Below, piece by piece: positions 8,960-26,024 of a stretch of DNA of 64,000 bases. Positions within the stretch are counted from its first letter, which is position 1. Every line of letters begins with the position of its first letter. A program made the translations under genes and the position numbers. This DNA is from an uncultured Flavobacteriaceae bacterium. GTDB taxonomy: Bacteria > Bacteroidota > Bacteroidia > Flavobacteriales > Flavobacteriaceae. Location: assembly GCA_943788165.1 (NCBI GenBank), contig CALSPF010000001.1, forward strand, positions 620,001 through 684,000. The letters run 5' to 3'. The notes below the pieces were generated by a model, which worked only from the letters and a program-made list of their open reading frames with translations, did not search any database and was not told where the DNA came from.

Positions 8960-9505
8960 ATGAAAAAAAATTGTTTACTCATGGTGGCATTAATGGTCAC
9001 CACATTACACGCACAAACAACTATGGAAAACTCTTTACATCAATTTACGGTTGAAACCCTTGAAGGGGAAACATTTGACTTTTCGAGCTTGAAAGGCAAA
9101 AAGGTTATGTTGGTCAATACGGCTTCAAAATGTGGTTTAACTCCGCAATACAAAGATTTGCAAGCGCTCTACGAGCAGTATGGAGCAGAAAACTTTGTAA
9201 TTGTTGGTTTTCCTGCCAACGATTTTTTAGTACAAGAACCTGGAACAAACGAAGAAATAGGCGCGTTTTGTGAACGCAACTACGGAGTGACCTTCCCTAT
9301 GATGGCCAAGATTGGCGTTAAAGGAAGAGACATGCACCCAGTTTATGCTTTCTTAACCCAAAAAGAAAAGAATGGTATAATGGATTCTAAGGTGACTTGG
9401 AATTTTCAAAAATATTTGATCAACGAAGAGGGTGTGCTAGAAAAAGTGATTTCTCCACGCACCTCTCCCGTTGATCCAGAAGTTATAGAGTGGATCACAA
9501 AATAA
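8960..9505 (+). CDS. Exported glutathione-peroxidase-like thiol peroxidase
   Basis: Reduces peroxides with thiol or thioredoxin reductants. The 181-residue protein starts with a signal peptide (KKNCLLMVALMVTTLHA) and continues as a GPx fold: the peroxidatic cysteine in NTASKCGLTPQYKDL, the GFPANDFLVQEPG loop, and WNFQKYLI with the conserved Trp and Asn. The active residue is Cys, not selenocysteine. It has its own candidate promoter and lies five bases before the trans-sulfuration gene. Confidence 0.9.
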   Translation: MKKNCLLMVALMVTTLHAQTTMENSLHQFTVETLEGETFDFSSLKGKKVMLVNTASKCGLTPQYKDLQALYEQYGAENFVIVGFPANDFLVQEPGTNEEIGAFCERNYGVTFPMMAKIGVKGRDMHPVYAFLTQKEKNGIMDSKVTWNFQKYLINEEGVLEKVISPRTSPVDPEVIEWITK

Positions 9506-9509
9506 TTCC

Positions 9510-10658
9510 ATGAAAAAGAAACAATTTGAAACCCAATGTGTCCATGAGGGTCAATTGAAAGACAAACAATACAAAGGAGCCATTTCTCCCCTGTATATGT
9601 CGACTGCCTATTCGTATGAAGAAACGGACCGCTATCCTCGCTATTTCAACACACCCAATCAAGCAGGTTTAGCAAAGAAAATTGCTGCCTTGGAAGGGGC
9701 AGAGGAAGGCTTGATTTTTGGCTCTGGAATGGCGGCCATTTCAACAGCTTTGCTTGCCTATTTACACAAAGGGGATCATGTGGTGTTGCAAAACGATTTA
9801 TATGGTGGGACGACAAATTTAGTTGTAGAGCATTTTAACAAATACGGTATTGAATATGCTTTTGCAGATGCCTTGGATGCAGCCTCTTTTGAAGCGAAAA
9901 TTCAGCCCAACACTAAGGTTATCTATATAGAAACCCCCAGTAATCCTTTGATGAAGATTGTTGATTTAGCAGCCATTGCTGCGCTCGCCAAAAAGCACCA
10001 GTTGGTGTCGATGATCGATAATACTTTTGCTTCACCGGTAAATCAAAACCCCATTGCGTTTGGAATTGATATTGTCTTGCATTCTGCCACAAAATACCTG
10101 GGAGGACATAGTGACATTTTAGCTGGTGCAGTTGCCTGTTCAGCAGCCCACATGGAACGTATTTTTTCTATAGCAAAGAGCCTTGGGGGGAACCTAAGCG
10201 ATATTTCTGCTTGGTTATTGGAACGCAGTATCAAAACCCTAGCCATTCGGGTGAAACAGCAAAATGAAAATGCCTTGGCATTGGCGCATTACTTGGAAGA
10301 GCATCCACTGATTGCGAAGGTCTACTACCCGGGATTAGCCTCGCATCCTGATCATGCTCTAGCGAAACGGCAAATGCATGGTTTTACAGGTATGATGTCT
10401 TTTGAAATTGCCAGTGGAGTTGATCGACCTACCTTTGAAAAAAACCTCGAAATTATTCAGCCTGTTGTCAGTTTAGCAGGGGTGGAGAGTACCATTACCA
10501 TTCCCTCGATTACGTCCCACAAACTACTTTCTCCAGTGGGAAGAGCTAAGCAAGGAATAGCGGATAATCTGGTGCGTTTCTCCGTGGGAATCGAAACCCT
10601 CGAGGATTTAAAAGGTGATTTAAATAACGCTTTAAAAAAAGCTGAACATGAAGGTTGA
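9510..10658 (+). CDS. Trans-sulfuration PLP enzyme (cystathionine synthase/lyase family)
   Basis: A 382-residue Cys/Met-metabolism PLP enzyme. The PLP-binding lysine is in HSATKYLGGHSD; other family signatures are FGSGMAAISTALL, YGGTTNLV, YIETPSNPLMKI and SLGGVES-type SLAGVESTITIPS. Members make or cleave cystathionine, or act as methionine gamma-lyases; sequence reading cannot separate these. Its 3' end overlaps bshB1 by 11 bases, which suggests a link between cysteine supply and bacillithiol synthesis, since cysteine is the last building block of bacillithiol. Confidence 0.88.
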   Translation: MKKKQFETQCVHEGQLKDKQYKGAISPLYMSTAYSYEETDRYPRYFNTPNQAGLAKKIAALEGAEEGLIFGSGMAAISTALLAYLHKGDHVVLQNDLYGGTTNLVVEHFNKYGIEYAFADALDAASFEAKIQPNTKVIYIETPSNPLMKIVDLAAIAALAKKHQLVSMIDNTFASPVNQNPIAFGIDIVLHSATKYLGGHSDILAGAVACSAAHMERIFSIAKSLGGNLSDISAWLLERSIKTLAIRVKQQNENALALAHYLEEHPLIAKVYYPGLASHPDHALAKRQMHGFTGMMSFEIASGVDRPTFEKNLEIIQPVVSLAGVESTITIPSITSHKLLSPVGRAKQGIADNLVRFSVGIETLEDLKGDLNNALKKAEHEG

Positions 10659-11367
10659 TATCCTCGCTTTTGGCGCACATCCAGACGATATTGAATTGGG
10701 TTGTGGAGGAAGCATTGCTCTTGCCATTGCACAAGGAAAAACAGTAGGCATGGTTGATCTTACTCGTGGAGAGCTAGGAACACGTGGGTCGGCAGAAATT
10801 CGCAAGCAAGAAGCGATGAATGCAGCTGAGCTACTACAGGTGTCTTTCCGAAAAAACTTAGAATTTCGCGATGCTTTCTTTATCAATGATGAAGAACATC
10901 AGCTTGCAGTTATCCATCAGATTAGAACATATCAACCCAGTATTGTTTTATGCAATGCCATTGATGACCGTCATATTGATCACGGAAAAGGGAGTCAGTT
11001 GGTTAGTGACGCATGCTTTTTGGCAGGCTTGCAGAAAATTGAAACCCAAGATGAGGAAGGAAAACCACAGCAGCCTTGGCGCCCACAGTATGTTTACCAT
11101 TATATTCAATGGAAAGAAATTACGCCAGATTTTGTGGTGGATATTTCGGCTCATCTAGACACTAAAATAGCATCCATAGAAGCCTATTCAAGCCAATTCT
11201 TCGACCCAATCAGTAATGAGCCTTCAACGCCTATAAGTAGTAAGAATTTCATTGAAAGTGTACGTTATAGAGCACAGAATTTAGGCCGCCTCAGTAATGT
11301 AGAAGCTGCCGAAGGTTTTACCGTGGAACGTACCCCATTAATCAATGATTTCAAAAACGTTCGATAA
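10648..11367 (+). CDS. bshB1: Bacillithiol biosynthesis deacetylase BshB1
   Basis: Removes the acetyl group from GlcNAc-malate in bacillithiol synthesis. The 239-residue PIG-L/LmbE protein begins MKVDILAFGAHPDDIELGCG; the zinc motif AHPDDxE is intact, and the third zinc ligand is probably in DDRHIDHGKG. The ending RNLGRLSNVEAAEGF resembles the BshB1 subgroup, which distinguishes it from generic LmbE proteins. It overlaps the upstream trans-sulfuration gene by 11 bases. bshA and bshC are not in the window. Confidence 0.9.
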   Translation: MKVDILAFGAHPDDIELGCGGSIALAIAQGKTVGMVDLTRGELGTRGSAEIRKQEAMNAAELLQVSFRKNLEFRDAFFINDEEHQLAVIHQIRTYQPSIVLCNAIDDRHIDHGKGSQLVSDACFLAGLQKIETQDEEGKPQQPWRPQYVYHYIQWKEITPDFVVDISAHLDTKIASIEAYSSQFFDPISNEPSTPISSKNFIESVRYRAQNLGRLSNVEAAEGFTVERTPLINDFKNVR

Positions 11368-11422: not shown

Positions 11423-11497
11423 GGTGGTTGTAGCTCAGTTGGTTAGAGCGCCTGATTGTGGTTCAGGAGGTCGGCGGTTCGAAACCGCTCTTCCACC
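11423..11497 (+). tRNA. tRNA-His (GTG)
   Basis: Cloverleaf with anticodon loop TTGTGGT between stem arms CCTGA and TCAGG, D-arm GCTC/GAGC, and T-arm GGCGG/CCGCT around TTCGAAA. The extra G at position -1 and the discriminator C73 are typical tRNA-His identity elements. In my folding, acceptor pairs 5-68 and 6-67 are T-T mismatches. No CCA is encoded. The 3' side carries a scar of decayed mobile-element-like genes. Confidence 0.93.
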
Positions 11498-11974: not shown

Positions 11975-12265
11975 ATGAAAGTTATATTTTCCTTCCTTTT
12001 TATTTCAATCTCTTTTATCTCTTGCAATAATGAAGAAGCCTGTCCCAATATCGGTTCTCCTGTTTGTGGTGGTGATGGAATAACATATGGCAACGAATGT
12101 TATGCATTAGCAGAAGGTGTTAAAGAATTTACAATGGGAGAATGCATATTTTGTTATGAAATATACCAACCTGTTTGTGGTTCTGATGGAATAACATACA
12201 GTAATGATTGCAAGGCAAGAGTAGCTGGAATTACTGAATTTACAACTGGAGAATGTTCTGATTAA
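11975..12265 (+). CDS. Double Kazal-domain lipoprotein (protease inhibitor-like)
   Basis: A 96-residue protein with a lipoprotein signal peptide (FLFISISFISC, lipid cysteine C17) and two Kazal-like modules. Module 1 has PVCGGDGITYGNECYA and ends GEC at about residue 56; module 2 has PVCGSDGITYSNDCKA and ends GEC. The C-x(n)-PVCGxDGxTYxNxC pattern is the hallmark of Kazal serine protease inhibitors. It would sit on a membrane surface, perhaps protecting against secreted or foreign proteases. It is flanked on the other strand by decayed mobile-element fragments, so it may be cargo. Confidence 0.85.
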   Translation: MKVIFSFLFISISFISCNNEEACPNIGSPVCGGDGITYGNECYALAEGVKEFTMGECIFCYEIYQPVCGSDGITYSNDCKARVAGITEFTTGECSD

Positions 12266-12679: not shown

Positions 12680-15600
12680 ATGATTATGGACTACAAAAAA
12701 TCATCTTTAAATTTTAGCTCAAGTGTTAAAATTGGATGGAAAAACCATGTGAAAGTGAACCTTCTTTTGTTTACTTTTTTATTTGGATCGTATAACTTTA
12801 CTTATGCGAAACCAAATGATAATGAAGCTGAAGAATATCATTTAAAAAATGATTTGACGAATGCGTTTAGCAAAACTTCAACAAAAGGGAATCAATCTAA
12901 ACAAGAGAATTCTGCTCAACTTACCTTGACAGGTAATGTTACAGATGACACAGGTTCTCCACTTCCTGGTGCGACTGTTATTGAAATTGGCTCTTCAAAT
13001 GGGGTGATTACAGATTTCGATGGTGGGTTTACCCTCTCAGTTTCTGGGCCTGAAGCAGCAATTCTTGTTTCCTATTTAGGTTTTGATTCTGTTCAGATTT
13101 TAGCTTCTGATTTTGGCGACCAAACGAATATCTCCTTAACCGAATCAGCGTCCGCTCTCGATGAGATTGTCATTACAGGATATGGTCGACAAGTGAAAAG
13201 AAATATTACTGGAGCTGTCTCATCAATATCGGCTAAGCAAATAGAAGACCTTCCTTTGGCTAGTTTTGAAAATGCTATTCAAGGTCAAATGGCTGGGGTG
13301 CAAGTTACTGAACCGTCTGGAGAGCCTGGAGCAGGGGCAACCGTACGAGTTCGTGGTATTGGATCAATTTCTGCTGGTAATGAGCCATTGTATGTTGTAG
13401 ACGGTTTTCCAATTTCTAAAAACGTCGATCTTGGAGTTCAAGGGGATAACTTTAGAAGAGGATCAGGGCGTTTTCGCCCACCAACTCAAAATCCTCTAGC
13501 CAACTTGAATCCAAATGATATCGAATCTATTCAGGTCCTGAAAGATGCCTCAACGGCCTCTATCTACGGATCTAGAGGATCGAATGGAGTCGTTATTATT
13601 ACAACCAAAAGAGGAAAAAAAGGAGGAGCGCCGTCTTTCTCTTATAATACTTTTGTTGGAACACAGTCTGTTGCCAATAGACTGGACTTGATGAATTCTG
13701 CGGAATTAATAGAGTACAATAAAGAAGCATCAAACAATGCATACTTACAAAACGGACCTGCTGGGGCAAGCACCTCTGATCCAAATAGCGTAAGAACAAA
13801 TGGTGCTTGGAGACTTGCAGAGGATGTTCTTAATCCAAGTGGTGTAGATAATGACTGGCAAGACACTCTGTTTAGATCTGCTTTGGTCCAAACCCATAAT
13901 CTTTCTGTTTCAGGTGGATCAGATAATTCAAGTTATTTCATTTCTGGGAATTATTTTGATCAAGACGGTATTATTGAAAAATCGAATTTTAAACGATACA
14001 GTTTACGCGTAAACCTTGAAGTTGATTTAAACGATAGAACAAGAGTTGGTCTAAATCTTGCTCCTTCTTATATTGTTTCAGATAAAGTTCCTGCGGGGTC
14101 TCCTTATTTTGCACGTCCTCCTGGAATTGTGTATTCAGGTATTGTCCACGCACCATTTGTTAAGCCATATAATCCAGATGGAAGCATCAACCAATTGAAC
14201 AATCAAAGTTATATTCTAACTCCAGAAGGACAATCATCTTCTTTCACATCAGCGAGTAACCCTTTAGCGATTATTCAGGCTGTTGATGACCGCTTGAATC
14301 AGAATAGAACCTTCGGAAATATTTTCATGGAATATGATCTTACGAGCGATTTAATTTTTAAAAGTTATTTCGGTGTAGACGTTAACAATTACAGCCGTAA
14401 CTTTTATAGAGCAAGTAGTTTACTTTACAGAACATCTTCTTCTGGAGAAACATATGGTCAAACAAGTTCTTCAAATAGTTTAAGCTGGGTAGCAGAACAA
14501 ACACTTAACTACAACAAAGAAATTGGTAGCCATAGAATAGATGCCTTAGTTGGATATACTGCACAAAAAGAAAGAATTAATATCAGTACAGCAGTTGCAG
14601 ATAACTTTCCAGATGATTTAGTAAAAACAATTAGTGGAGGCCAAATATCACAGGGAACTGCAGTTCAAGAAGAATGGTCATTGGTTTCAATGTTAGCCAA
14701 AGTAAATTATTCTTATGAAGATCGATTCCTAGCAACAGCCTCTTTACGATCTGATACATCTTCAAGATTTGGTAAGGGAAACAAGACGGGTATTTTTCCT
14801 GCATTATCTGCTGGATACAGAATTTCAGAAGACATTGGTGCTGACTGGCTAAGTGACTTGAAATTAAGAGCAAGCTGGGGGCAAACAGGGAATTTTTTAA
14901 TTCCTAATTATGCTTCTATTGGTCTATTGAGTACTTACAATACAACTTTTGACGGAACACTAACCAACGGAATAGCTCCTTCGACCATAAGCAATCAGGA
15001 TTTAAGTTGGGAGAAAACAGCTTCAGTCGATATTGGACTTGATTTTGGCTTTTTAAACGATCGAATTTATGGATCTTTTGAGTATTTTCAAAGTACAACA
15101 ACTGATCTATTATTAGCAGTTCAAATTCCTTCCGCATTAGGCTTTACAAATGCATTAACAAACATAGGAGAAGTTGTAAATAAAGGTTTTGAAATTAGTT
15201 TAACCAGTAGAAATCTAGTTGGTGAGTTAAAATGGACAACAGATTTTAATTTTTCTACAATCAACAATGAAGTTACAAAATTAGGCCCATCCGGAGATCC
15301 TATATTAAGTAGTGGTGCAGCTGGAAATAGACATATTACCAAAATTGGAGAAGCTGTAGGAAGTTACTATGGATATCAAACCAATGGAATTTATCAAAAT
15401 CAAGCTGAAATTGATAATAGCGGTATAGTTGATCAAGTTGCTACACCTCGTCCTGGAGATTTTAAATGGGTTGATGTTAATGAAGATGGTTTTATTAATT
15501 CTGCTGACCGTACAGTTATTGGAAATTATTTACCTGACTTTACTTATGGTATGAATAACCGTTTCGAATACAGAGACTTTGAGTTTAGTTTTCTCTTACA

Positions 15601-16036
15601 AGGAGTTGAAGGAAATGAAGTGTTAAATCTCACTAGACGTCACATGGGTAATGGAGAAGCTAATTACAACAGTTACAGTGAATGGAATAATCGTTGGAGA
15701 TCTGAAGCACAACCTGGAAATGGATCAATTCCTAGAGCCAATCGTCAGACGGGAAATAGTAACAACCGACCTTCAAGTTATCAAGTTGAAGATGCATCTT
15801 ATTTGAGACTTAGAAATGTAACTTTGGCCTATAATTTTCCCCAAAATGAACTTGGAGGGAAAATCGAAGATCTAAGACTATACTTGTCTGGAACAAACTT
15901 ATTCACTAAAACAGATTATTTAGGGTTTAACCCAGAAGTTAATAACCAAGATGATAATACAAATGTACAAGGTGAGGACTACGGTGCTTATCCTTTATCA
16001 AGTGTTATCACCATAGGAATCAATGCTAAATTTTAA
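12680..16036 (+). CDS. SusC/RagA-like TonB-dependent outer membrane transporter
   Basis: An 1118-residue outer-membrane importer for oligosaccharides, working with the SusD protein encoded next. It has an N-terminal export signal ending near FTYAKP (residue about 44), a carboxypeptidase-D-regulatory-like domain (about 81-150, LTLTGNVTDDTGSPLPGATV), a TonB box (LDEIVITGYG, 160-169), a plug domain with NAIQGQMAGVQV, VRVRGIGSIS and EPLYVVDGFPI, and a long 22-strand barrel. ATG at 12680 or 12686 (MDYKK) are both possible. There is no N-terminal STN domain, so it should not signal to an anti-sigma factor. It heads an operon with susD. Confidence 0.95.
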   Translation: MIMDYKKSSLNFSSSVKIGWKNHVKVNLLLFTFLFGSYNFTYAKPNDNEAEEYHLKNDLTNAFSKTSTKGNQSKQENSAQLTLTGNVTDDTGSPLPGATVIEIGSSNGVITDFDGGFTLSVSGPEAAILVSYLGFDSVQILASDFGDQTNISLTESASALDEIVITGYGRQVKRNITGAVSSISAKQIEDLPLASFENAIQGQMAGVQVTEPSGEPGAGATVRVRGIGSISAGNEPLYVVDGFPISKNVDLGVQGDNFRRGSGRFRPPTQNPLANLNPNDIESIQVLKDASTASIYGSRGSNGVVIITTKRGKKGGAPSFSYNTFVGTQSVANRLDLMNSAELIEYNKEASNNAYLQNGPAGASTSDPNSVRTNGAWRLAEDVLNPSGVDNDWQDTLFRSALVQTHNLSVSGGSDNSSYFISGNYFDQDGIIEKSNFKRYSLRVNLEVDLNDRTRVGLNLAPSYIVSDKVPAGSPYFARPPGIVYSGIVHAPFVKPYNPDGSINQLNNQSYILTPEGQSSSFTSASNPLAIIQAVDDRLNQNRTFGNIFMEYDLTSDLIFKSYFGVDVNNYSRNFYRASSLLYRTSSSGETYGQTSSSNSLSWVAEQTLNYNKEIGSHRIDALVGYTAQKERINISTAVADNFPDDLVKTISGGQISQGTAVQEEWSLVSMLAKVNYSYEDRFLATASLRSDTSSRFGKGNKTGIFPALSAGYRISEDIGADWLSDLKLRASWGQTGNFLIPNYASIGLLSTYNTTFDGTLTNGIAPSTISNQDLSWEKTASVDIGLDFGFLNDRIYGSFEYFQSTTTDLLLAVQIPSALGFTNALTNIGEVVNKGFEISLTSRNLVGELKWTTDFNFSTINNEVTKLGPSGDPILSSGAAGNRHITKIGEAVGSYYGYQTNGIYQNQAEIDNSGIVDQVATPRPGDFKWVDVNEDGFINSADRTVIGNYLPDFTYGMNNRFEYRDFEFSFLLQGVEGNEVLNLTRRHMGNGEANYNSYSEWNNRWRSEAQPGNGSIPRANRQTGNSNNRPSSYQVEDASYLRLRNVTLAYNFPQNELGGKIEDLRLYLSGTNLFTKTDYLGFNPEVNNQDDNTNVQGEDYGAYPLSSVITIGINAKF

Positions 16037-16047
16037 ATTAAATAGAC

Positions 16048-17418
16048 ATGAAACTAAACTATAATATATACACAATAATTTTACTCGTTTTTGTCTCTTG
16101 TTCGAAAGAATTTACTGAATTAGCGCCAATTTCTGAGCGCAATGCAGATAATTTTTACAACACTGCAAGTGACATGGAGGTTGCTGTAAATGCAATTTTC
16201 AGTACCTTAAAAGACAATGGAGCATTCAATCAAAGTTACTGGATTCTTCAAGAGTTACGATCTGATAACACCTTTTGGGATGGAACTGGATTAGCAGAGG
16301 AAGTAACAGTTTTCGATAATTTCACAGAGATTTCCACCAGTGATATCACGGAAGATGCTTGGGCAACTTCCTATCTTGGAATTTCGAGAGCGAACATTGT
16401 TTTGAATCGAATTGAGGATATTTCAATGGATGCATCAACAAAGTCGCGTCTTACGGGCGAAGCATTGTTTCTAAGATCGTTATACTACTATAACTTGGCA
16501 GTACTTTTTGGAAATATTCCACTGATTTTATCAGAAACGGCTTCAGTAGAAGAAGGGAACAATCACCAACAAGTAGCAGCTTCAGTCGTTTATGCTCAAA
16601 TTGTCGCTGACCTTGCATTGGCGGAATCAGCCCTGCCATCCAAAGCAAGTACTTCCAATGGAAGAATTTCAAAAGGAGCAGCAGCTGCCCTCTTGGGTAA
16701 GGTTTATCTAACTATGGGAGATTCTTCTAATGCAGAATCAGTATTACGCAGAGTTTTAACCTATGGTTATTCTCTGGTTGCAAACTACAGTGACCTCTGG
16801 GGAGTAGCTAACGAATACAATGATGAATCAATTTTTGAAGTTGATTTTCAAGGTGGTTTAGGAAGCCAAGGGAACAGTTTTACAAGCCAATTTCATGGGG
16901 TTTTATCTCAATCGGTCACTTCTGGACAACGGAATATCCCAGAGCAAGATCTTGTTGATGCTTATGAAAATGGAGATTTACGATTTGCCGCATCTATAGA
17001 AGGAGTTACCGGAACAAGTACAGGATATACGATCAAATTTGGATCTACAAATCCTTTTACAGACGACGATGCGCCAAATAACTGGCCAGTGTTGAGGTAT
17101 GCGGATGTATTATTAATGTTGGCAGAGTCTCTTGGAGAAACAAATGAAGCTTACGGATTTATAAACCAGGTAAGAACTCGCGCAGGTTTAGCACCAATAG
17201 ACCAGAACACGCCTGGAACCTTTACAGACAAACTTCTGCATGAAAGAAGAGTTGAGTTGGCTTTTGAAAATCACAGATGGCCAGATTTACTTAGAATGAA
17301 TAAAGCGACAACTGTATTGGCAGCTCAAGGGAAAAACGTTAACGGAAAACTCTTGTTTGCGATTCCACAAAGAGAATTAGATTTAAACTCCAATTTCACA
17401 CAAAATTCAGGATATTAA
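16048..17418 (+). CDS. SusD/RagB-like glycan-binding lipoprotein
   Basis: A 456-residue surface lipoprotein that caps the SusC barrel and binds the glycan. The signal peptide ends in the lipobox LVFVSC with lipid cysteine C18. The SusD N-terminal signature is visible (NFYNTASDMEVAVNAIFSTL), followed by TPR-like repeats (LFLRSLYYYNLAVLFGNIPL; AAAALLGKVYL) and the family C-terminus with LLHERRVELAFENHRWPDLL. It starts 11 bases after susC and ends at a strong terminator, so susC and susD form their own transcript. Confidence 0.95.
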   Translation: MKLNYNIYTIILLVFVSCSKEFTELAPISERNADNFYNTASDMEVAVNAIFSTLKDNGAFNQSYWILQELRSDNTFWDGTGLAEEVTVFDNFTEISTSDITEDAWATSYLGISRANIVLNRIEDISMDASTKSRLTGEALFLRSLYYYNLAVLFGNIPLILSETASVEEGNNHQQVAASVVYAQIVADLALAESALPSKASTSNGRISKGAAAALLGKVYLTMGDSSNAESVLRRVLTYGYSLVANYSDLWGVANEYNDESIFEVDFQGGLGSQGNSFTSQFHGVLSQSVTSGQRNIPEQDLVDAYENGDLRFAASIEGVTGTSTGYTIKFGSTNPFTDDDAPNNWPVLRYADVLLMLAESLGETNEAYGFINQVRTRAGLAPIDQNTPGTFTDKLLHERRVELAFENHRWPDLLRMNKATTVLAAQGKNVNGKLLFAIPQRELDLNSNFTQNSGY

Positions 17419-17430
17419 TTAACTAACTTT

Positions 17431-17466
17431 AAAGGCATCATTTAAACTTAAATGATGCCTTTTTTT
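17431..17466 (+). terminator. Strong intrinsic terminator after susD
   Basis: A perfect 13-bp stem (AAAGGCATCATTT with AAATGATGCCTTT) with a six-base loop, followed by a T-run. It separates susCD from the enzyme genes, which may lower their expression relative to susCD or need their own promoter. Confidence 0.9.
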
Positions 17467-17489
17467 ATCTAAATTTAATAAATTTCAAA

Positions 17490-18383
17490 ATGAAAAAATT
17501 AGCACTATTGCTATTTGCCTTTGTTTCTATAACATTGGTTAATGCACAAGAAAAAAAATTAAATATTATCGCTATTGGTGCTCATCCCGATGATTGTGAT
17601 AGTAAATTCGGCGGTACTGCGGCCTTATTTGCTAAAATGGGGCATAACGTTAAATTTTTGGCTCTTACTAGTGGAGATGCTGGCCACCAGTCCGAGGGTG
17701 GAGGTGCATTGGGTAACAGACGAAGAGAAGAGGCTAAAGATGCAGGAAAGGCCCTTGGAATTGCAGAATACCAAACCTTAGATAATCACGATGGAGAATT
17801 ACTTCCTTCTTTGGCTGTAAGACACCAGGTTATTAGAGCCATTCGAGAGTGGGATGCAGATATTGTTTTAGGGTTACGCCCAAACGACTACCATCCTGAT
17901 CATAGAAATGCAGGAAAGGTTGTTGTCGATGCCTCTTATATGGTGATTGTTCCAAACGTATGTCCAGACACACCTCCATTATCAAAAAACCCATTGTTCC
18001 TATATATGGAAGATCGCTTCCAAAAGCCTTACCAACATCAGGCTGATGTTGTCATTGCAATTGATGAAACAATTGAATTAAAAATAGATGGGTTAGATGC
18101 GCATACTTCTCAAATGTATGAATGGCTTCCTTGGACAAATGGAGGAGACGCTAGTGTAGCGAAAATCCCAACATCACCAAAAGAAAGACGCGCATGGCTT
18201 GCAGAGAGAACAAAGAAAAGATCAGGAAACATCAACTCCAAGAAACAGGCCACACTTGTTAAATGGTATGGCGATAATGCTGCGAAAAAAGTAAAGTATG
18301 TTGAGTCATTTGAAGTTGCTGAGTACGGTTTTCAGCCCTCTGAAAAAGATATTAGAGAGTTTTTCCCTATGCTAAAAAACTAA
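17490..18383 (+). CDS. Exported PIG-L/LmbE-type N-deacetylase
   Basis: A 297-residue PIG-L enzyme with a signal peptide (MKKLALLLFAFVSITLVNAQ), so it acts in the periplasm or outside. The zinc motif is complete: H32, D34 (catalytic base) and D35 in AIGAHPDDCD, with the third zinc ligand probably in NDYHPDHRNAG. Family members remove acetyl from GlcNAc-type sugars. In this locus it would deacetylate N-acetylhexosamines before import, which would remove the need for NagA. Family length is normal (about 230-300). Confidence 0.87.
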   Translation: MKKLALLLFAFVSITLVNAQEKKLNIIAIGAHPDDCDSKFGGTAALFAKMGHNVKFLALTSGDAGHQSEGGGALGNRRREEAKDAGKALGIAEYQTLDNHDGELLPSLAVRHQVIRAIREWDADIVLGLRPNDYHPDHRNAGKVVVDASYMVIVPNVCPDTPPLSKNPLFLYMEDRFQKPYQHQADVVIAIDETIELKIDGLDAHTSQMYEWLPWTNGGDASVAKIPTSPKERRAWLAERTKKRSGNINSKKQATLVKWYGDNAAKKVKYVESFEVAEYGFQPSEKDIREFFPMLKN

Positions 18384-18393
18384 ATTTTCCCCT

Positions 18394-19656
18394 ATGAAAA
18401 AAAACCTGCTTTTGGTAGGCTTAATACTTATCATTTTTTTCGTTATTTCCTTTCTAACAAATATCATAGGTCCGCTTGTACCTGATATAATTGAAAGCTT
18501 TGGATTGAGTTTAACAATGGCAGCATTTCTTCCATTTGCCTTTTTTGTCGCTTATGGAGTGATGTCAATTCCATCAGGAATTTTAATAGAACTATATGGA
18601 GAGAAAAAGGTCATGATTATGGCCTTTTTAATCTCTTCGGTGGGCGCTTTTTTATTCGCTCTTAACGCGCACTATATTTTTTATCTTGTCTCTCTATTTT
18701 TAATTGGCTCAGGGATGGCAATGCTACAAGTAGCAATAAACCCATTGCTTAGAACAATTGGAGGAGAAAAGGATTTTGCATTTAATTCTGTTTTAGGACA
18801 ATTGTTTTTTGGCTTGGCTTCTTTCCTTAGTCCACTTGTGTATTCATATATAGTCATTAATTCATCAGACATAAATCAATCCAGTAGTTGGGTAACTCAA
18901 TTACTATCAAAAATCACCATACCAGGTCTAGAATGGATTTCATTATACTGGATTTTTGCCATCATATCCTTATTAATGGTCTTTGTGATTATGTTTTCTA
19001 AATTCCCAGTAGTTGAACGAAAAGAGGATGAAAAAACTGGGGCGATAGACACCCATATAATGCTCCTCAAAAAGCCAATGGTATTATTGTATTTCTTTGC
19101 AGTTTTTTGTTACGTGGGGACGGAGCAAGGTATTGCCAATTGGATTTCACAATTTTTAGCTGTTTATCATGACATTGACCCTCAAGTCCAAGGCGCTAAA
19201 ACGATTTCTAATTTTTGGGGAATGATGACTTTAGGGACGCTCTTAGGACTAGTTCTTTTAAAGTTTTTAGATAGTAGAAAAGTTCTTATTGTTACTTCAA
19301 CCGCTTCTATTTTAGCATTATTGATGGCTCTTTTTGGAAACAGCGCACAAGCTTTAATTGCCTTTCCAATCATAGGCTTTTTTATCGCCACAATGTGGTC
19401 AATTATAATTTCATTAGCTTTAAATTCTGTTGCTGAAGCACATGGCTCTTTTTCAGGTATACTTGTTACTGGAATTGTTGGAGGAGCTGTTGTTCCATTT
19501 ATTGTAGGAGGATTAGGAGATATTTTTGGCCTTAGAACAGGAATGGTTTTCTTGTTTATAACGCTTTTATTTATCCTCTCAATTGGATTTTGGTCAAAAC
19601 CATTAATCAACAATGAAACTTTCCTAACCTCTTTTAAAAAGGCAAAAAGTAAATAA
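18394..19656 (+). CDS. MFS sugar transporter (FucP/NagP-like)
   Basis: A 420-residue inner-membrane protein with 12 predicted helices. The first has FLTNIIGPLVPDIIESFGLS, followed by YGVMSIPSGILIELYGEKK, which matches the FHS (fucose/glucose/N-acetylglucosamine) branch of the major facilitator superfamily. It begins 10 bases after the deacetylase gene and ends five bases before the ROK kinase gene. It should bring the free amino sugar or related monosaccharide into the cytoplasm; the exact substrate is inferred from context only. Confidence 0.88.
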   Translation: MKKNLLLVGLILIIFFVISFLTNIIGPLVPDIIESFGLSLTMAAFLPFAFFVAYGVMSIPSGILIELYGEKKVMIMAFLISSVGAFLFALNAHYIFYLVSLFLIGSGMAMLQVAINPLLRTIGGEKDFAFNSVLGQLFFGLASFLSPLVYSYIVINSSDINQSSSWVTQLLSKITIPGLEWISLYWIFAIISLLMVFVIMFSKFPVVERKEDEKTGAIDTHIMLLKKPMVLLYFFAVFCYVGTEQGIANWISQFLAVYHDIDPQVQGAKTISNFWGMMTLGTLLGLVLLKFLDSRKVLIVTSTASILALLMALFGNSAQALIAFPIIGFFIATMWSIIISLALNSVAEAHGSFSGILVTGIVGGAVVPFIVGGLGDIFGLRTGMVFLFITLLFILSIGFWSKPLINNETFLTSFKKAKSK

Positions 19657-19661
19657 ATCAG

Positions 19662-20492
19662 ATGGCATATATTGGAGTAGATTTAGGTGGAACAAAAGTC
19701 CACATTGCCAAAATAGTTGATCAATCTTGTGAAAAATATATCCGATCACTTATTCCAAGTCAAGGAACTGAAGAAGAAGTCTTAGATGTTATTAAAGACG
19801 CAATTGCTAAAGTAATCGATCAAGATATAGTGGGCATTGGAATTGGTGTCCCAAGCGTAGTTGACCAGCAATTGGGAATTGTGTATGATGTACAAAATAT
19901 ACCCTCATGGAAAAAAGTACACTTAAAAGATATTTTGGAGGCCCATTTTAAAATCCCAGTCCACATCAATAACGATGCAAATTGTTTTTCTCTAGGCGTA
20001 CTTCATTTTGGTGTAGGGAGAGACTTTGACTCATTTGTTGGCCTCAGTATTGGAACAGGCATTGCCGGAGGAATCGTCATCAATAAGAAACTATACAACG
20101 GTTTTAATACTGGCGCTGGTGAATTTGGAATGTTAGCCTATCAAGAAGATAACTATGAGCATTATTGCAGTGGTCAATTCTTTCAAAAAGTACACGGGCT
20201 CGCGGGTGAAAAAGTATTTGAAAGAGCAAAGGCAGGGGATTTGGATGCTCTTGCGATTTACACAACTTTTGGAAAACACCTTGGAAAGCTACTTAACCAA
20301 ATTTTGTACACATATGATCCGGAGCTTATTGTTCTTGGAGGGTCAGTCAGTAAAGGATATTCTTTTTTTGAAAAAGGGATTCAATTAAGTTTACGAGATT
20401 TCGCCTATCAAAATTCAATTTCTAATTTAAAAATAACCATATCCAACGATCCAGATATCGCTGTTAAAGGAGCCGTTGCACTATGCTATTAA
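19662..20492 (+). CDS. ROK-family sugar kinase
   Basis: Phosphorylates a hexose or hexosamine after import. The 276-residue protein has the ATP-binding start YIGVDLGGTKVHIAKI, the sugar-binding NNDANCFSLG, the phosphate loop GLSIGTGIAGGIV and GEFGM. The usual ROK zinc site (GxH followed by CxCGxxGC) is not conserved: the corresponding stretch is HYCSGQFF. I believe this variant occurs in other Bacteroidota. In context a glucosamine or N-acetylhexosamine kinase is the most economical reading. Confidence 0.87.
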   Translation: MAYIGVDLGGTKVHIAKIVDQSCEKYIRSLIPSQGTEEEVLDVIKDAIAKVIDQDIVGIGIGVPSVVDQQLGIVYDVQNIPSWKKVHLKDILEAHFKIPVHINNDANCFSLGVLHFGVGRDFDSFVGLSIGTGIAGGIVINKKLYNGFNTGAGEFGMLAYQEDNYEHYCSGQFFQKVHGLAGEKVFERAKAGDLDALAIYTTFGKHLGKLLNQILYTYDPELIVLGGSVSKGYSFFEKGIQLSLRDFAYQNSISNLKITISNDPDIAVKGAVALCY

Positions 20493-20509
20493 CCAAATAA
20501 TATAATTAA

Positions 20510-23159
20510 ATGAGATTTATACACACCCGTTACTTACTAATTGTTTTTTTGTTTTCGTTAAGCAGTTTGACCTTTGCCTCTGACTTAATACCACTTAAAA
20601 TCCACAAAAGTGTCGAAGGTGCTCCCATTACACTTGGAATTCCCTTTCCACAGGGTGAACTTTTCTCGCCAGACCACATTCGTTTATTGGATAAGAACGG
20701 AAACGAAATTCCTAGTCAAACGACAGAAGTAACCTCATGGGCTCCAGTAGATAACAGTATAAAATGGATATGGGTATTTTTCTTTTCCAATGGGGATCAA
20801 GAATATCAGCTTGAATACGGGGAAGAGGTTTCAAAGGCACCCCTAAAAGGACCAACAATAAAAATAAAAAATGCACAGCGAAAAGGGCAAACTACTATTG
20901 TTAATACCGGACCACTTCAATTCAATATCCTCAAGGGTAAAGGTGGTTTTATCGATAATGTGATGTTCGATACTGATGGAAATGGTTTTGATGAACAAGA
21001 TGAAATTGCTACTTCTGTTAATGGTAGAGGTTCATTTTTAGATCTTCTGGACGCACAAGGTATTGATCCCTCTACTGCAATAGTTAATAGAACTGTACGA
21101 GAAAAAGGATCTGGCCCTTTACATTCGATTATTCGTATTGAAGGAGAATATTCCTACAGTAGAGATGACAACCGAAATTCTCCTTTCATTATCCGAGTGC
21201 ATGCTTATGCAGGAAAGACCTATATCAAAGTGCTACATACAATGACCTATACAGGAGTTCCAGACATGCACGACCAATCATTGAGTGGCTATGATAATAT
21301 TGCAACGGGCTATTCCAGCTCATTCAATAATAATAAGGTGACCGAAGATAAAGGATGGACCATCCCCAACGATCAGATTCATTCTATGGGTTTAAACCTA
21401 AAGTATAATCTTGAAGCAAACAAACAATTTACAACGGCATATTCACTTGGGAATTGGAGTGAAAATAAAGAGGAACAGATTTTTGTAGATTCGCTTAACG
21501 ATAAAAGTAGCGCTTCTATTTTTCAAGAAGGGCCTAAGCTAACCAGAAAAAACAACAGCTCTCCAGAAGAAAGAATTGCTGGGTTTAATGCCAAAATTCG
21601 TGTGGGATCAGATTTAAAAAAACAAGTTCAACGCGCTGAAGGCTGGGCAAATATTAGCGACAGCAAGTGGGGGATTAGTCTCGGAATAAAACATTTCTTA
21701 AAAGAATATCCCAAAGAGATCGCTTTTAATGATTTAAACGAAGAGGCTATTGCTTATTTGTGGTCTCCCAAAGCACCTCCAATGAGTTTTGAACGAGCCA
21801 ACACAACACCAGATCAGGGAATGATTGCCAACTTTGCTGAGGGGATTACTAAAACAAGTGAATTAGTGATTCACTTCCACAGGGCAAATGTATCAACCAA
21901 TGATTTAGAGTCAACGATGGCTTATTTTTTAGATCCTCCCGTAGCCAGTGCAGATCCATCTGTATATTCACGCAGTCAAGTTTACGGTAATTTTTCACCA
22001 AGAAGTAATCGAAACGCTGCTTTTGAGCGATCGATTGACTATAAATTTCATTGGCAGAAATTTAATCAAGATTGGGAGCCGTGGTATGGTATGTTTGATT
22101 ATGGAGATCAAAAAAAATATTTTCTATAAAGACGAATGGATTCGATGGCAAAACAACGAACCCGCAATAGATTTTATGTATTGGATTCAATTCATGCGAA
22201 CCGGAGATCCAAACTATTACAATGCCGCCGAAGCAATGAGTCGTCACACCATGGATGTTGATAATGTTCATTGGCCAAAAGATCCAGAATATTATGGGGA
22301 TACAAATGATGCCATTGATTTTTGGAAAATTGACAATGCGAATACAACCGAATCGAAGGCAACTCCCTACCTAGGAATTGGAAGAAGACACGCGTCTCAA
22401 CATTGGGCAGCCCTTTTGAGTGCACATGTTTGGAATCAAGGCTGGATTGCTTCTTATTATCTTACGGGTTACCATAGAGGCTTGGAGATAGCCCGTTTAA
22501 CTGCAGACTCTTTTCTAAGAAGACAATGGGGAGAACATGGACTAACGGGACGAAGATTGTATTTATCCGTATGGAATTTGGTTGAGGCTTGGGATGCAAC
22601 CAAAGATCCAAAATATCATGAAGATTTAAAAGATCGTGTTCAACGAATGCTTTATTTACAAAACGGAGCAGATCAATATGATAGCTTTGTGATTGATCGT
22701 TACGGATATTCTCAGGTGTATGTATCACACGGCTTATATAAATACTACCAATTAACACAAAGTAAGGAAGTCAAACAGGGGCTTATTCGACATGCAAGAG
22801 CGGTTAGAGATAACCCGCCTTATAATCATGAATATGAGTCTTTACTCTCCACCATTCACAGTTTGTTAGTAGGGTATGAGCTTACAAAAGAGGAGAGCTT
22901 TTTGACGGTAGCCAAAATGCGCTCTGAATTGCTTCAATCTGATTCAGTTGAAAAGGACTTATATAGTTATGACACGCAAAAATCGCTAGGAGATGCCTTG
23001 TTAAAGGCTTCCAGACTTCCAGATAATGGAGTGCTTACCAAACCCAGTGGGAGATTTATTTCCAATTGGAATCCATTGCAAGGTTTACGTGTGTTTGGAT
23101 GGACCCATTTTTATAGTATACCTTGGTTAGAATATTGGTTAAATGAAGAAAAGAAATAA
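20510..23159 (+). pseudogene. Exo-rhamnogalacturonan-lyase-like (PL26/YetA-like) enzyme, frameshifted at an A8 run
   Basis: Two overlapping frames, 20510-22129 and a +1 frame continuing to 23159, encode the two parts of one exported enzyme of about 880 residues. The first has a signal peptide (LLIVFLFSLSSLTFASD) and an N-terminal beta-domain (APITLGIPFPQGEL, NEIPSQTTEVTSWAPVDNSI KWIW) like the RIFT-barrel of PcRGLX/YetA proteins. The second has an alpha/alpha-barrel-like part (ASQHWAALLSAHVWNQGW, GLTGRRLYLSVWNLVEAWDA). The break is at eight A residues, 22110-22117; seven would join QK-NIFYKDEW in frame. Both parts look well conserved, so it may be a recent mutation, a homopolymer read error or a slippage site. 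The family assignment is moderate. Confidence 0.65.
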
Positions 23160-23997
23160 GCGTATTTTATTTAAGAGAAACGGGCTAATTGTTCTCTTTT
23201 TGTGGACTATTTCCTTTTCGGGACAAAACGATTCTTCCCTTAAACAACAAATAGTATCTCATTCCGATGGAGTGGGACTATGGTGGGCAGGTCACAATGG
23301 TTGGATCATTAAATCTAACGGGTTGGTTATTTCTACTGATATTCTTCTAAACTATGACAAAAGAAAACAGTCTCCGCCAATAAACGAAGAAGAATTAGCC
23401 GAAATATTGGATATTTCTTTTATTACCCATGGCCATAAAGATCATTTTGCCAGAAGTATTTCTAAAACTCTACTTGAAAAATCAAGTTGTATTTTTGTAA
23501 TTCCTCAGAGCTGTATCACTATCGCAAAAGAATTGAATATTCCACCAGAGCGGATCATCGTTGCTAAGCCCAGAGAACCTTTTGAAGTTTTAGGGGTAAA
23601 AGTTTCTCCACTTAGAGCCATCCATGGAAATTCAAATTTCGCGATATATTATAAAGCTAATTTAGAAGATTGTGGTTATGTTTTAGAAGTGGGAGGAAAA
23701 CGATTTCTTCAACCAGGTGACAGTTTCCTTTTAGAGGATCATCTCATGGAGAAGAACATTGATGTGCTTTTCTTTTCACCTACTGAACACAATATGCACA
23801 TTAAAAGCAGCCTAACTTTAATTAATAAAATAAAGCCAAAATACATTTTACCACAACATCACTCTACAGTTGTCGTCAACGAAAATACTTTTTTCTGGGC
23901 TAAAGGTTACCACCGAGAAGTGAAGAGTCAACTCTCACTCGCACTAAAAAAGCGATATTATATTTTAAAGCAGGGGGATAAAATTTTAATTAATTGA
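23143..23997 (+). CDS. Exported metallo-beta-lactamase-fold hydrolase
   Basis: A 284-residue MBL-fold protein with a signal sequence (GLIVLFLWTISFSGQ). The metal motif THGHKDH is at residues 95-101, with later ligands in IHGNSN, QPGDSF and PQHHST. The overall form (WWAGHNGWIIKSNGLVISTD start) resembles the UlaG/NAPE-PLD-like branch, which includes sugar lactonases and phosphodiesterases. It overlaps the end of the lyase gene by 17 bases, so it belongs to the same transcript. A role on the glycan (lactone or ester opening) is inference. Confidence 0.8.
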   Translation: MKKRNKRILFKRNGLIVLFLWTISFSGQNDSSLKQQIVSHSDGVGLWWAGHNGWIIKSNGLVISTDILLNYDKRKQSPPINEEELAEILDISFITHGHKDHFARSISKTLLEKSSCIFVIPQSCITIAKELNIPPERIIVAKPREPFEVLGVKVSPLRAIHGNSNFAIYYKANLEDCGYVLEVGGKRFLQPGDSFLLEDHLMEKNIDVLFFSPTEHNMHIKSSLTLINKIKPKYILPQHHSTVVVNENTFFWAKGYHREVKSQLSLALKKRYYILKQGDKILIN

Positions 23998-24014
23998 ATT
24001 AGTAGGCTCTCAAT

Positions 24015-25925
24015 CTAAAAGTAAAATCGCTTAAAGGTCTCTATTGCCTCGTATTCAGACATACCTAAAAAATTATATTCTTTTGCGATTGACCTATTCA
24101 GTTCAGAGGTTCTTAGTAAAATACTGTTATTGTCTTCTTCCAACACAAGCAATTGATCAATCTGGGATTGATGTTTGTTTATTAAAGAGATTTTATCGTT
24201 GACTTGAGATGGACTCATTGGTACGGCCATATCAATATTTTGTAGATCCCAATTCTCCAACCCACCCTTGTACATCCATACCCAGCAGTCTTTCATAAAG
24301 GGTTCTAGCTTAAGTTCATTTATAGAGGATAAAAGAATTTCCCAACAAAGGCGTTGAGTTGAATGTGGAACACCTAAATTACCTGCGGCAAAAATCTGGT
24401 GAGGCTTTATCTTTTCAATGAGTGAAGAAATCACTTGTAGGTCTTTCTTATTGGGGTTATTTTTTTTTGTGATTCTATTTTCATAAAATGGCAGACTTAA
24501 AAAATGAACGTTTTCTTTGGGTAGGTTTAGCAACCGAGCTGATTCTTGTGATTCACTTACACGAATAAAACTCTTTAATTCCCTTAAGGCGACAGAATCT
24601 GTATGGCCTTCTTTTGTGTTTAAAATCTCATTCTTTAATTTTTGAAAATTTAATTGATTGGGTTCAATTTGTAAGTACACTTCAATGTATCTCAAAGCAT
24701 GTTCATTTGAAACACCTCTACTTCCAGAGGTTTGGTAGGCTATATGCACCTGATGTCCTTGCTCTATTAATCTTGAAATAGTTCCGCCCATACTGATTAT
24801 ATCGTCAACTGGATGCGGACTAAAAATCAAACTTCTTTTGGAAGATGGGTTTGCCCTTTCAGGACGATTTTCATCTGAATATTTTGGTTTTCCACCTGGC
24901 CAACCGGTTATTGTTTTTTGCACTTGGTTGAACATCCAAATGTTTAAATCATAGACAGATCCGTAGGTGTTAATCAAGCCAGACAAACCATTCTCAGAAT
25001 AATCTCTTGGGGTAAGTTTTAATATCGATTTTCCAACTCGTTTACACAACCAAAAAACCGCTTTTTTTGTTAAAACCTCTGTCCACTCACAATCTAAAAC
25101 TAACCATGGGGTATTGATTCTAGTTAAATCAGAACTTGCTTCATTGTCAAGTATGAAAGTTACATTTGGGTGTTCTTGGAGAAAGGATGCAGGAGCAACC
25201 TCACTTATTGGCCCTTCAATTGTTTTGGCAACAACACTTGCTTTGTGATTACCCCATGCGAGTAAAACAATTCTTTTGGCCTTCATTATGGTATTAATTC
25301 CCATGGTAATTGCTTTCTTAGGAACTTTTTCAACTCCATTGAAGTCTTTTGCAGCATCATTTAAAGTCAGTGGATCAAGGGTTACCAATCGTGTGACAGA
25401 ATTTCTATGGGAGCCTGGTTCATTAAACCCAATATGAGCAGTTCTTCCAATCCCCAATAGTTGATAATCTAAGCCTCCTAGGGATACAATTTTATTTTCA
25501 TACATTTTGCAATAATCTCTGATATCATCTGAAGTTAAATCCCCCTTTGGAATATTTATCTGATTTTCAGGAATATCAATATGATCATATAAATGAACAC
25601 GCATAAAATGATGATAACTTTGCGCTTCTTTGGAAGAAATTGGATAATATTCATCTAGATTAAAAGTGACTACGTTTTTAAAACTTAAATTGTCGTTTTG
25701 ATGAAGCCAAACCAATTCTTTGTATACATCAATTGGTGAGGATCCTGTGGCAAGCCCCAGTACAAATTTTCGATCCACAGTTGTTTTGATATGCTGTGCT
25801 ATTTCATTGGCAACTAATTTAGAAGATTTGGTAGCCGAAGAATAGGTTAGATTGTGAATTTTCTCAAAACGGGTTTCTTGAAATTTACCAGGTGATTCAT
25901 GATTTATTGTGTTTTTTTTATCCAT
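24015..25925 (-). CDS. nagB: Glucosamine-6-phosphate deaminase fused to a PIG-L-like domain
   Basis: The N-terminal about 300 residues are NagB-like: LGLATGSSPIDVYKEL, VVTFNLDEYYP and LLGIGRTAHIGFNEPGS, with the catalytic His and Glu retained. NagB turns glucosamine-6-P into fructose-6-P and ammonia. The C-terminal about 280 residues are PIG-L-like, but the motif reads FSPHPVDDIISMGG, so the catalytic-base Asp position is Val. Such roughly 640-residue NagB fusions are known in Bacteroidota. I start at ATG 25925 rather than the upstream TTG (25937). It is convergent with the MBL gene, 17 bases apart, and closes the amino-sugar locus. Confidence 0.88.
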   Translation of the reverse strand: MDKKNTINHESPGKFQETRFEKIHNLTYSSATKSSKLVANEIAQHIKTTVDRKFVLGLATGSSPIDVYKELVWLHQNDNLSFKNVVTFNLDEYYPISSKEAQSYHHFMRVHLYDHIDIPENQINIPKGDLTSDDIRDYCKMYENKIVSLGGLDYQLLGIGRTAHIGFNEPGSHRNSVTRLVTLDPLTLNDAAKDFNGVEKVPKKAITMGINTIMKAKRIVLLAWGNHKASVVAKTIEGPISEVAPASFLQEHPNVTFILDNEASSDLTRINTPWLVLDCEWTEVLTKKAVFWLCKRVGKSILKLTPRDYSENGLSGLINTYGSVYDLNIWMFNQVQKTITGWPGGKPKYSDENRPERANPSSKRSLIFSPHPVDDIISMGGTISRLIEQGHQVHIAYQTSGSRGVSNEHALRYIEVYLQIEPNQLNFQKLKNEILNTKEGHTDSVALRELKSFIRVSESQESARLLNLPKENVHFLSLPFYENRITKKNNPNKKDLQVISSLIEKIKPHQIFAAGNLGVPHSTQRLCWEILLSSINELKLEPFMKDCWVWMYKGGLENWDLQNIDMAVPMSPSQVNDKISLINKHQSQIDQLLVLEEDNNSILLRTSELNRSIAKEYNFLGMSEYEAIETFKRFYF

Positions 25926-26024
25926 AAAATATAACAATTGTAAAAAAATAAGACAGAAAATAGACTAAATAAATTTATACTACGGTTATTTAAAAGCCAT
26001 TAAAAAATTAGACAAATTAGTGCC

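What the first reader, a model, noticed from the sequence alone, without database searches (positions are those of the whole stretch)
12680..25925. Amino-sugar utilization locus that seems to bypass NagA by deacetylating outside the cytoplasm
Seen: susC, susD, exported PIG-L deacetylase with intact HPDD motif, FHS-type MFS transporter, ROK kinase, exported PL26/YetA-like lyase (two frames), exported MBL-fold hydrolase, and convergent NagB/PIG-L fusion. No nagA, no classical glycoside hydrolase and no regulator is present. Known: PIG-L enzymes deacetylate GlcNAc groups, ROK kinases phosphorylate hexoses, NagB needs glucosamine-6-P. Inference: a glycan with N-acetylhexosamine and uronic acid is cut by the lyase, deacetylated in the periplasm, imported as free amino sugar, phosphorylated and deaminated. 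The target glycan and the MBL enzyme's role (lactone or ester opening) would be new.
Basis: partly seen in the sequence, partly recalled or inferred. Interest (0 to 1): 0.72.

Follow-up and report, generated by a model that had tools for sequence, protein, structure and literature searches.

The report
Bacillithiol-salvage operon in Bacteroidota
This DNA holds a set of neighbouring genes, conserved in many bacteria, that would let the cell take up an amino-sugar compound (likely the glucosamine-malate core of the bacterial thiol bacillithiol), cut it apart outside the cytoplasm and use the pieces without the usual NagA enzyme, whose gene was not found in this genome.

Summary
In detail: susC, susD, PIG-L, FHS-type transporter, ROK kinase, PL26-fold lyase in two frames, MBL hydrolase, convergent NagB/PIG-L fusion. 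Database copies of the lyase run in one frame. No nagA reaches the curated cut-off in this genome (94.55% complete). The gene set is a real module: of 80 lyase loci, 50 have ample flanks and 47 of these carry a PIG-L gene. The NagA bypass is therefore supported. The uronic-acid glycan is not: this genome has no detectable GH88 hydrolase, and relatives add a DASS symporter (within 4 kb of the lyase in 19 of 20 fetched regions, 9 of them re-samples) or, never with it, a DctA C4-dicarboxylate carrier. I propose that the acid part is a C4-dicarboxylate: the PIG-L enzyme frees the amine of a malyl-glucosaminide (bacillithiol type), the lyase beta-eliminates fumarate, and glucosamine passes through transporter, ROK and NagB. 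Substrate and catalysis are inferred. Against it: the window operon lacks the carrier, DASS may carry sulfate, and the PIG-L lacks one malate-contacting arginine of BshB.

The parts
12680..16036 (+). SusC/RagA TonB-dependent outer-membrane transporter
   Evidence: TIGR04056 904 bits, cut-off 368
16048..17418 (+). SusD-like surface lipoprotein (Cys near the N-terminus, read by eye)
   Evidence: SusD_RagB 102 bits, SusD-like_3 90 bits
17490..18383 (+). PIG-L/LmbE hydrolase, signal-like N-terminus read by eye, AHPDD and HPDH intact; predicted extracytoplasmic deacylase of an N-acyl-hexosamine
   Evidence: PF02585 90.5 bits; best NCBIfam TIGR04001 BshB1 112 bits, below its cut-off 182.5; alignments; model pLDDT 93, LmbE-like folds
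18394..19656 (+). FHS-type MFS sugar transporter (predicted glucosamine importer)
   Evidence: MFS_1 108.6 bits; TIGR01272 gluP 120, fucP 107, NagP 91 bits, all below cut-offs
19662..20492 (+). ROK kinase without zinc cysteines and with ExGM in place of the usual ExGH (predicted glucosamine kinase)
   Evidence: ROK 142 bits; ExGM in 47 of 51 aligned ROKs
20510..23159 (+). PL26/PcRGLX-fold lyase, signal-like N-terminus read by eye, broken into two frames here (20510-22129, 21948-23159); predicted to split the amino-sugar/acid bond by beta-elimination
22110..22117 (.). run of A at which the lyase frame breaks in this assembly
   Evidence: sequence; intact copies exist
23143..23997 (+). MBL-fold hydrolase (UlaG-like), hydrophobic N-terminus read by eye, accessory, role unknown
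   Evidence: Lactamase_B_3 42 bits; PRK11709 36 bits, below cut-off; its cluster occurs in 7 of 80 loci
24015..25937 (-). NagB (glucosamine-6-phosphate deaminase) fused to PIG-L, convergent
   Evidence: PRK02122 846 bits; TIGR00502 271 bits, cut-off 237; in-line in the same operon in relative L130

Best explanation
The locus belongs to a conserved operon family (SusC/SusD, PIG-L, transporter, ROK kinase, PL26-fold lyase, in some members NagB, and in many relatives a dicarboxylate-type carrier) that likely salvages an N-acyl-glucosaminyl-malate compound, most likely bacillithiol or its disulfide. Proposed steps: SusCD imports it over the outer membrane (inferred). The PIG-L enzyme, predicted to be exported, hydrolyses the amide on the amino sugar, removing acetyl or cysteine (inferred; family chemistry known). 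The PL26-fold lyase takes a proton next to a carboxylate of the malyl group and expels the sugar, giving free glucosamine and fumarate; this is the chemistry of uronate lyases moved to a malyl ether (inferred). Fumarate enters by a DASS or DctA carrier where relatives have one (the genes are shown, the substrate is inferred) and joins the TCA cycle, so no further acid-catabolic genes are needed. Glucosamine enters by the FHS transporter, is phosphorylated by ROK, and NagB turns glucosamine-6-phosphate into fructose-6-phosphate and ammonia, so NagA is not needed (inferred from families). My confidence by layer: amino-sugar use without NagA about 0.75; release of a C4-dicarboxylate about 0.55; bacillithiol-type substrate as given below.
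For: Module: with at least 4 kb upstream and 2 kb downstream, 50 of 80 loci qualify; PIG-L clusters in 45, plus L044 and L056 by HPDD motif, so 47 of 50; SusD 39, SusC 38, ROK 35, MFS 34 of 50. PIG-L is met in three distinct clusters (c4, c14, c11 with NPCBM), as if the activity is required. Amino sugar: NagB next to the lyase or in the operon. Dicarboxylate: DASS in 24 of 80 loci (22 within 5 kb of the lyase), DctA cluster in 8 of 80 (at the far end of the operon, 2.4-9.1 kb from the lyase), never both; the two DctA proteins scanned score 565 and 543 bits with NF002461, cut-off 513; in the phylum sample DASS lies 36 bp to 3.8 kb from the lyase (between matched stretches) in 19 of 20 regions, in all six families where the lyase was found, and is the only PF00939 match in G126, G052 and G343. 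The minimal operons in L128 and L129 keep SusCD, PIG-L, lyase and DASS but no MFS or ROK. DASS of L042 matches NaDC3, NaDC1, NaCT and VcINDY (260-237 bits) above the sulfate carrier SLC13A1 (230). Bacillithiol link: PIG-L scores best to BshB1 and Foldseek ranks BshB first; Bca, an LmbE enzyme, cleaves bacillithiol conjugates (PMC4101496, passages); BSH or N-Me-BSH genes are frequent in Bacteroidota and Balneolota (PMC12719100, passages) and N-Me-BSH was found in Polaribacter (PMC6282198, passages); an FAD oxidase near N-methyl-tryptophan oxidase (232 and 227 bits, cut-off 257) lies between susD and PIG-L in L024 and L032. The lyase fold is PL26 over the whole length.
Confidence: 0.35

Rival explanations
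1. One reading: a glycan or oligosaccharide of N-acetylhexosamine and uronic acid. The lyase cuts at the uronate, the PIG-L deacetylates, the free amino sugar is imported, and the unsaturated uronate is used by other genes.
For: PL26 fold and the known action of PcRGLX on a uronate glycan; SusCD pair; amino-sugar genes. GH88 is over the cut-off in 14 of 26 other lyase genomes.
Against: No GH88 match in this genome and none over the cut-off in 12 of 26; no other glycan-degrading enzyme among the conserved operon clusters and scanned neighbours; a DctA-type C4-dicarboxylate carrier or DASS does not fit an unsaturated uronate.
Confidence: 0.22
2. An amino-sugar conjugate with another carboxylic acid (for example a lactyl, glyceryl, aspartyl or tartryl group). 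The same operon logic holds, the acid differs between clades, and the carriers DASS, DctA and lactate permease follow it.
For: Carrier type varies: DASS, DctA, and lactate permease with a MOFRL kinase in L046; the window and 20 of 50 well-flanked loci have no DASS or DctA in the fetched stretch.
Against: DASS and DctA share C4-dicarboxylates as usual substrates (established knowledge); the L046 arrangement was seen once; a bare lactyl or glyceryl ether has no leaving group placed for this elimination.
Confidence: 0.2
3. Chitin- or peptidoglycan-type GlcNAc scavenging as in Thermococcus: PIG-L as diacetylchitobiose-like deacetylase, with the lyase-fold protein acting as a glycosidase rather than a lyase.
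For: PIG-L is about as close to diacetylchitobiose deacetylase as to BshB by sequence and fold; a NagA-free route by deacetylation has an archaeal precedent (recalled).
Against: No chitinase or glucosaminidase among the conserved operon clusters; I know of no PL26 member that hydrolyses; the dicarboxylate-type carriers stay unexplained.
Confidence: 0.12
4. The PIG-L protein is not a deacylase but a hydratase like GalB, hydrating the unsaturated acid made by the lyase.
Against: HPDD and the third metal His are kept in all 34 operon PIG-Ls that I aligned; GalB lacks the catalytic Asp (recalled, not tested here).
Confidence: 0.05

Closest known systems
Polysaccharide utilization locus (SusCD type)
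   Same: SusC/SusD pair followed by enzymes with signal-like N-termini, an inner-membrane transporter and a kinase; ECF sigma and FecR genes in many relatives
   Different: one lyase and one PIG-L, no glycoside hydrolase; a DASS or DctA carrier in many relatives
PL26 exo-rhamnogalacturonan lyase PcRGLX
   Different: distant in sequence; linked to PIG-L, NagB and dicarboxylate-type carriers
BshB / Bca (bacillithiol deacetylase and conjugate amidase, LmbE/PIG-L)
   Same: HPDD plus His metal site; Arg78 aligned with BshB Arg53; best NCBIfam hit is BshB1
   Different: signal-like N-terminus; below the BshB1 cut-off; Tyr in place of Arg109
Thermococcus/Pyrococcus diacetylchitobiose deacetylase route (recalled)
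   Same: deacetylation before kinase and deaminase, no NagA
   Different: archaeal and linked to chitinase and glucosaminidase; here SusCD, a lyase-fold enzyme and dicarboxylate-type carriers
NagK-NagA-NagB GlcNAc catabolism
   Same: ROK kinase and NagB
   Different: no NagA found; deacylation predicted before import

Membership tests
SusCD-type utilization locus | adjacent SusC and SusD genes | tested here: met
SusCD-type utilization locus | at least one carbohydrate-active enzyme in the same operon | tested here: met
   PL26-fold lyase and PIG-L, by family only
PL26 | PcRGLX domain architecture and fold | tested here: met
PL26 | lyase activity on rhamnogalacturonan | not testable with these tools
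   needs an enzyme assay; no paper with the term PcRGLX was found
BshB1 (TIGR04001 equivalog) | score over the curated cut-off | tested here: not met
   112 bits against 182.5; the BshB1 of this genome is window 10648-11367, 284.5 bits
BshB1 (TIGR04001 equivalog) | Arg109 contact to GlcNAc-malate | tested here: not met
   Tyr134 at that column, in all 34 aligned
LmbE/PIG-L metallohydrolase | HxDD plus His metal and base motif | tested here: met
   H32, D34, D35, H138 invariant in 34 aligned of the 49 c4 members plus window
NagB glucosamine-6-phosphate deaminase | TIGR00502 equivalog score | tested here: met
   271 bits, cut-off 236.9
NagA-dependent GlcNAc catabolism | nagA in the genome | tested here: not met
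   no match over the cut-off in a 94.55%-complete genome
Bacillithiol-salvage pathway (proposed) | C4-dicarboxylate carrier in the operon family | tested here: inconclusive
   DASS or DctA in 32 of 80 loci, never both; DASS in 19 of 20 regions; absent from the window operon; DASS may carry sulfate
Bacillithiol-salvage pathway (proposed) | lyase releases fumarate from GlcN-malate | not testable with these tools
   needs an enzyme assay

The most novel reading that the evidence does not exclude
This is a dedicated pathway for eating bacillithiol, probably the most widespread small thiol of bacteria. SusCD brings in bacillithiol or its disulfide, an exported PIG-L amidase removes cysteine (or acetyl), and a PL26-fold enzyme is a new kind of glycosyl-malate lyase that splits GlcN-malate into glucosamine and fumarate, which enter by separate carriers and feed glycolysis (via NagB) and the TCA cycle.
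Probability: 0.33. Interest if true: 0.85.

Novelty: new variant of a known kind. Interest (0 to 1): 0.6.

Why it matters
If true, it gives the first catabolic route that I know of for bacillithiol, a pool of carbon, nitrogen and sulfur that dying Bacteroidota and Bacillota cells would release, and a first non-uronate role for a polysaccharide-lyase fold. Even if the acid is another one, the operon defines a NagA-free route of amino-sugar use, predicted to start outside the cytoplasm, shared by several phyla, and the carrier genes tell biochemists which products to look for. No paper on such a route appeared in the listings; only open-licence PMC papers were searchable, and most of these listings were capped.

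Tried and rejected
Tried: (1) Uronate model by GH88 search: weakened, not excluded. (2) Fold comparison to choose the PIG-L substrate: LnmX, GalB, diacetylchitobiose deacetylase and BshB tie, not informative. (3) PcRGLX catalytic residues could not be compared: no paper with that term was found, and no model coordinates were in the Python box. (4) Comparison of DASS with solved carriers: for L042 nearer to dicarboxylate carriers, for L089 the sulfate carrier is close behind; not decisive. (5) PIG-L without lyase: a flavobacterial clade of 16 sequences lies together in the tree, often next to a Tat-type GFO/IDH/MocA protein (cluster in 12 of 20 regions); another context, not used for the model. 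(6) The FAD oxidase near PIG-L as N-methyl-cysteine oxidase: kept as a hint only (2 loci, below cut-off). (7) Bacillithiol genes near the operon: BshB1 lies 1.3 kb upstream in the window, probably by chance. (8) Rfam: only a tRNA in 8000-32000. (9) PMC5270733 (passages) holds nothing on bacillithiol catabolism in the places shown.

Dropped before counts: the count of 50 excludes 30 of 80 loci with short flanks; itself kept the best 80 of 101 candidates. G331 was left out of the 20 regions because its lyase lies at a contig end. In L120 (G056) the DASS was missed by my ORF picking and counted from the coordinates; G347 has no DASS near the lyase. The genomes for searches are 26 of the 80 loci's genomes, chosen by me for spread; one more genome (G017) has a nagA-like match at 178 bits, below the cut-off of 226.
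Full report
OBSERVATION. The lyase is broken into two frames in this assembly at a run of A near 22110, but a database protein identical over the N-terminal frame runs through 882 residues (P0001, 8 member sequences on 16 contigs, source not shown), so the break is either a sequencing error or recent. The host genome (2.18 Mb in 4 contigs, 94.55% complete) has no nagA over the cut-off (8 amidohydrolase-superfamily matches exist), no GH88 match, a second NagB-family gene and one DASS on other contigs. It has bshA (555 bits) and BshB1 (window 10648-11367, 284.5 bits), so it likely makes bacillithiol itself; bshC was not searched.

MODULE. A profile of 36 lyases found 80 loci in one-per-species genomes (the best 80 of 101). 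Calling ORFs and clustering them showed the same operon again and again: often ECF sigma and FecR, then susC, susD, PIG-L, MFS, ROK, lyase. With at least 4 kb upstream and 2 kb downstream (50 of 80 loci) PIG-L is present in 47: 45 by cluster, 2 more by HPDD motif; L062, L078 and L079 lack it. PIG-L comes in three clusters, c4, c14 and c11 with NPCBM, so the activity seems needed rather than a particular gene. SusD is in 39, SusC in 38, ROK in 35, MFS in 34 of the 50. An own-phylum sample gave the lyase in 22 of 395 genomes including this one.

AMINO-SUGAR END. NagB is near in 12 of 80 loci; in L033, L034, L050 and L094 a stand-alone NagB follows the lyase directly, and the L034 copy scores 317 bits against a cut-off of 237. 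In L130, of the same family as the window, the operon reads susC susD PIG-L PIG-L MFS ROK lyase NagB-PIG-L DASS. nagA is over the cut-off in 8 of 27 lyase genomes examined. So a route acyl-hexosamine to hexosamine to hexosamine-6-phosphate to fructose-6-phosphate without NagA is well supported by gene content. That the PIG-L works outside the cytoplasm rests on its N-terminus, read by eye.

ACID END. The genes added in relatives are DASS symporters (24 of 80 loci, 22 of them within 5 kb of the lyase) or DctA-type carriers (8 of 80, at the far end of the operon), never both. Two of the eight DctA-cluster proteins were scanned: both pass one C4-dicarboxylate model (565 and 543 bits, cut-off 513) and miss another (478 and 448 against 570). 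All six families in which the lyase was found have it. Three of these genomes have no other PF00939 match. L128 and L129 keep SusCD, PIG-L, lyase and DASS but no MFS or ROK in the region. The DASS of L042 is nearer to NaDC3, NaDC1, NaCT and VcINDY than to the sulfate carrier SLC13A1; that of L089 is nearest to NaDC1, with SLC13A1 close behind NaDC3 and above VcINDY. The common substrates of DASS and DctA are C4-dicarboxylates (established knowledge). This points to malate, fumarate or succinate as a product, rather than to an unsaturated uronate. In line with that, GH88 is not a fixed partner: no match here; over the cut-off in 14, below it in 4 and without any match in 8 of 26 other lyase genomes. 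No KduI, KdgK or KdgA gene was met among the 50 neighbouring proteins scanned with Pfam (recurrent clusters and a selection of single ORFs, not all).

MECHANISM. A compound with glucosamine, an N-acyl group and a C4 acid is known: bacillithiol, Cys-GlcN-malate. LmbE enzymes act on N-acetyl- or N-acyl-glucosamine cores, and one of them, Bca, cleaves bacillithiol conjugates, presumably leaving GlcN-malate (PMC4101496, passages; the paper prints 'maleate'). A polysaccharide lyase abstracts a proton next to a carboxylate and expels the glycosyl oxygen on the neighbouring carbon. A malyl glucosaminide offers the same arrangement: loss of a proton at C3 of the malyl group and departure of the sugar from C2 gives fumarate and free glucosamine. 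A lyase that makes fumarate from an ether is known (carboxymethyloxysuccinate lyase, EC 4.2.99.12, recalled). This would explain together the PIG-L, the lyase, the sugar route and the dicarboxylate-type carriers, and why no further acid-degrading genes are needed. Bacillithiol and its N-methyl form are frequent in Bacteroidota and Balneolota by gene content (PMC12719100, passages) and N-methyl-bacillithiol was detected in Polaribacter (PMC6282198, passages). In L024 and L032 a FAD oxidase close to N-methyl-tryptophan oxidase (232 and 227 bits, cut-off 257) lies between susD and PIG-L, as a use of N-methyl-cysteine would need; this is a hint from two loci.

DOUBTS. The window operon itself has no DASS or DctA, and 20 of 50 well-flanked loci have PIG-L but neither carrier within the fetched stretch. 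DASS may carry sulfate. L046 has lactate permease and a MOFRL kinase instead. G498 has a DASS-PIG-L pair without SusCD or lyase beside it. Among the 120 homologues listed per search, close PIG-L copies far outnumber close lyase copies, and the surroundings of the metagenomic ones could not be fetched. A related flavobacterial PIG-L clade without lyase (16 sequences) is often paired with a GFO/IDH/MocA protein. I found no assay of any operon member, and no paper on such a route was seen in the listings.

VERDICT. The genes and the NagA bypass stand; the uronic-acid glycan is unlikely; a C4-dicarboxylate-bearing amino-sugar conjugate, best candidate bacillithiol, is my preferred and testable reading.

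Noticed in passing
window 8960-11367: Small thiol-metabolism cluster just upstream of the locus: glutathione-peroxidase-like, cystathionine-lyase-like PLP enzyme, and a BshB1 over its cut-off (284.5 bits).
   Followed up: partly
window 11424-11497: tRNA gene between bshB1 and susC.
   Followed up: no
window 11975-12265: 96-aa exported or lipoprotein-like ORF with what looks like two Kazal-type (protease inhibitor) repeats, by eye.
   Followed up: no
L170-L185 (PIG-L regions without lyase, same family): A separate PIG-L clade (16 sequences) is often next to a Tat-signal GFO/IDH/MocA protein (cluster in 12 of 20 regions); an MR/MLE enolase-fold protein and a GH109 protein occur near some.
   Followed up: partly
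L166:1-2900 (G498): Divergent DASS and PIG-L pair with no SusCD or lyase beside it, in a 66%-complete genome.
   Followed up: partly
L046:9059-15879: PIG-L and lyase followed by an L-lactate permease and a MOFRL/DUF4147 (glycerate-kinase-like) gene; no DASS or DctA in the fetched stretch.
   Followed up: no
window 19662-20492 and operon ROKs: ROK kinases of the operon form a subfamily with ExGM in place of ExGH (47 of 51 aligned) and without the zinc cysteines.
   Followed up: partly
L024:5332-6531 and L032:6626-7855: FAD oxidase near N-methyl-L-tryptophan oxidase between susD and PIG-L.
   Followed up: partly
G000:C2:653243-653917: Second NagB-family gene of the host genome, on another contig, in a 641-aa frame like the fusion.
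   Followed up: no
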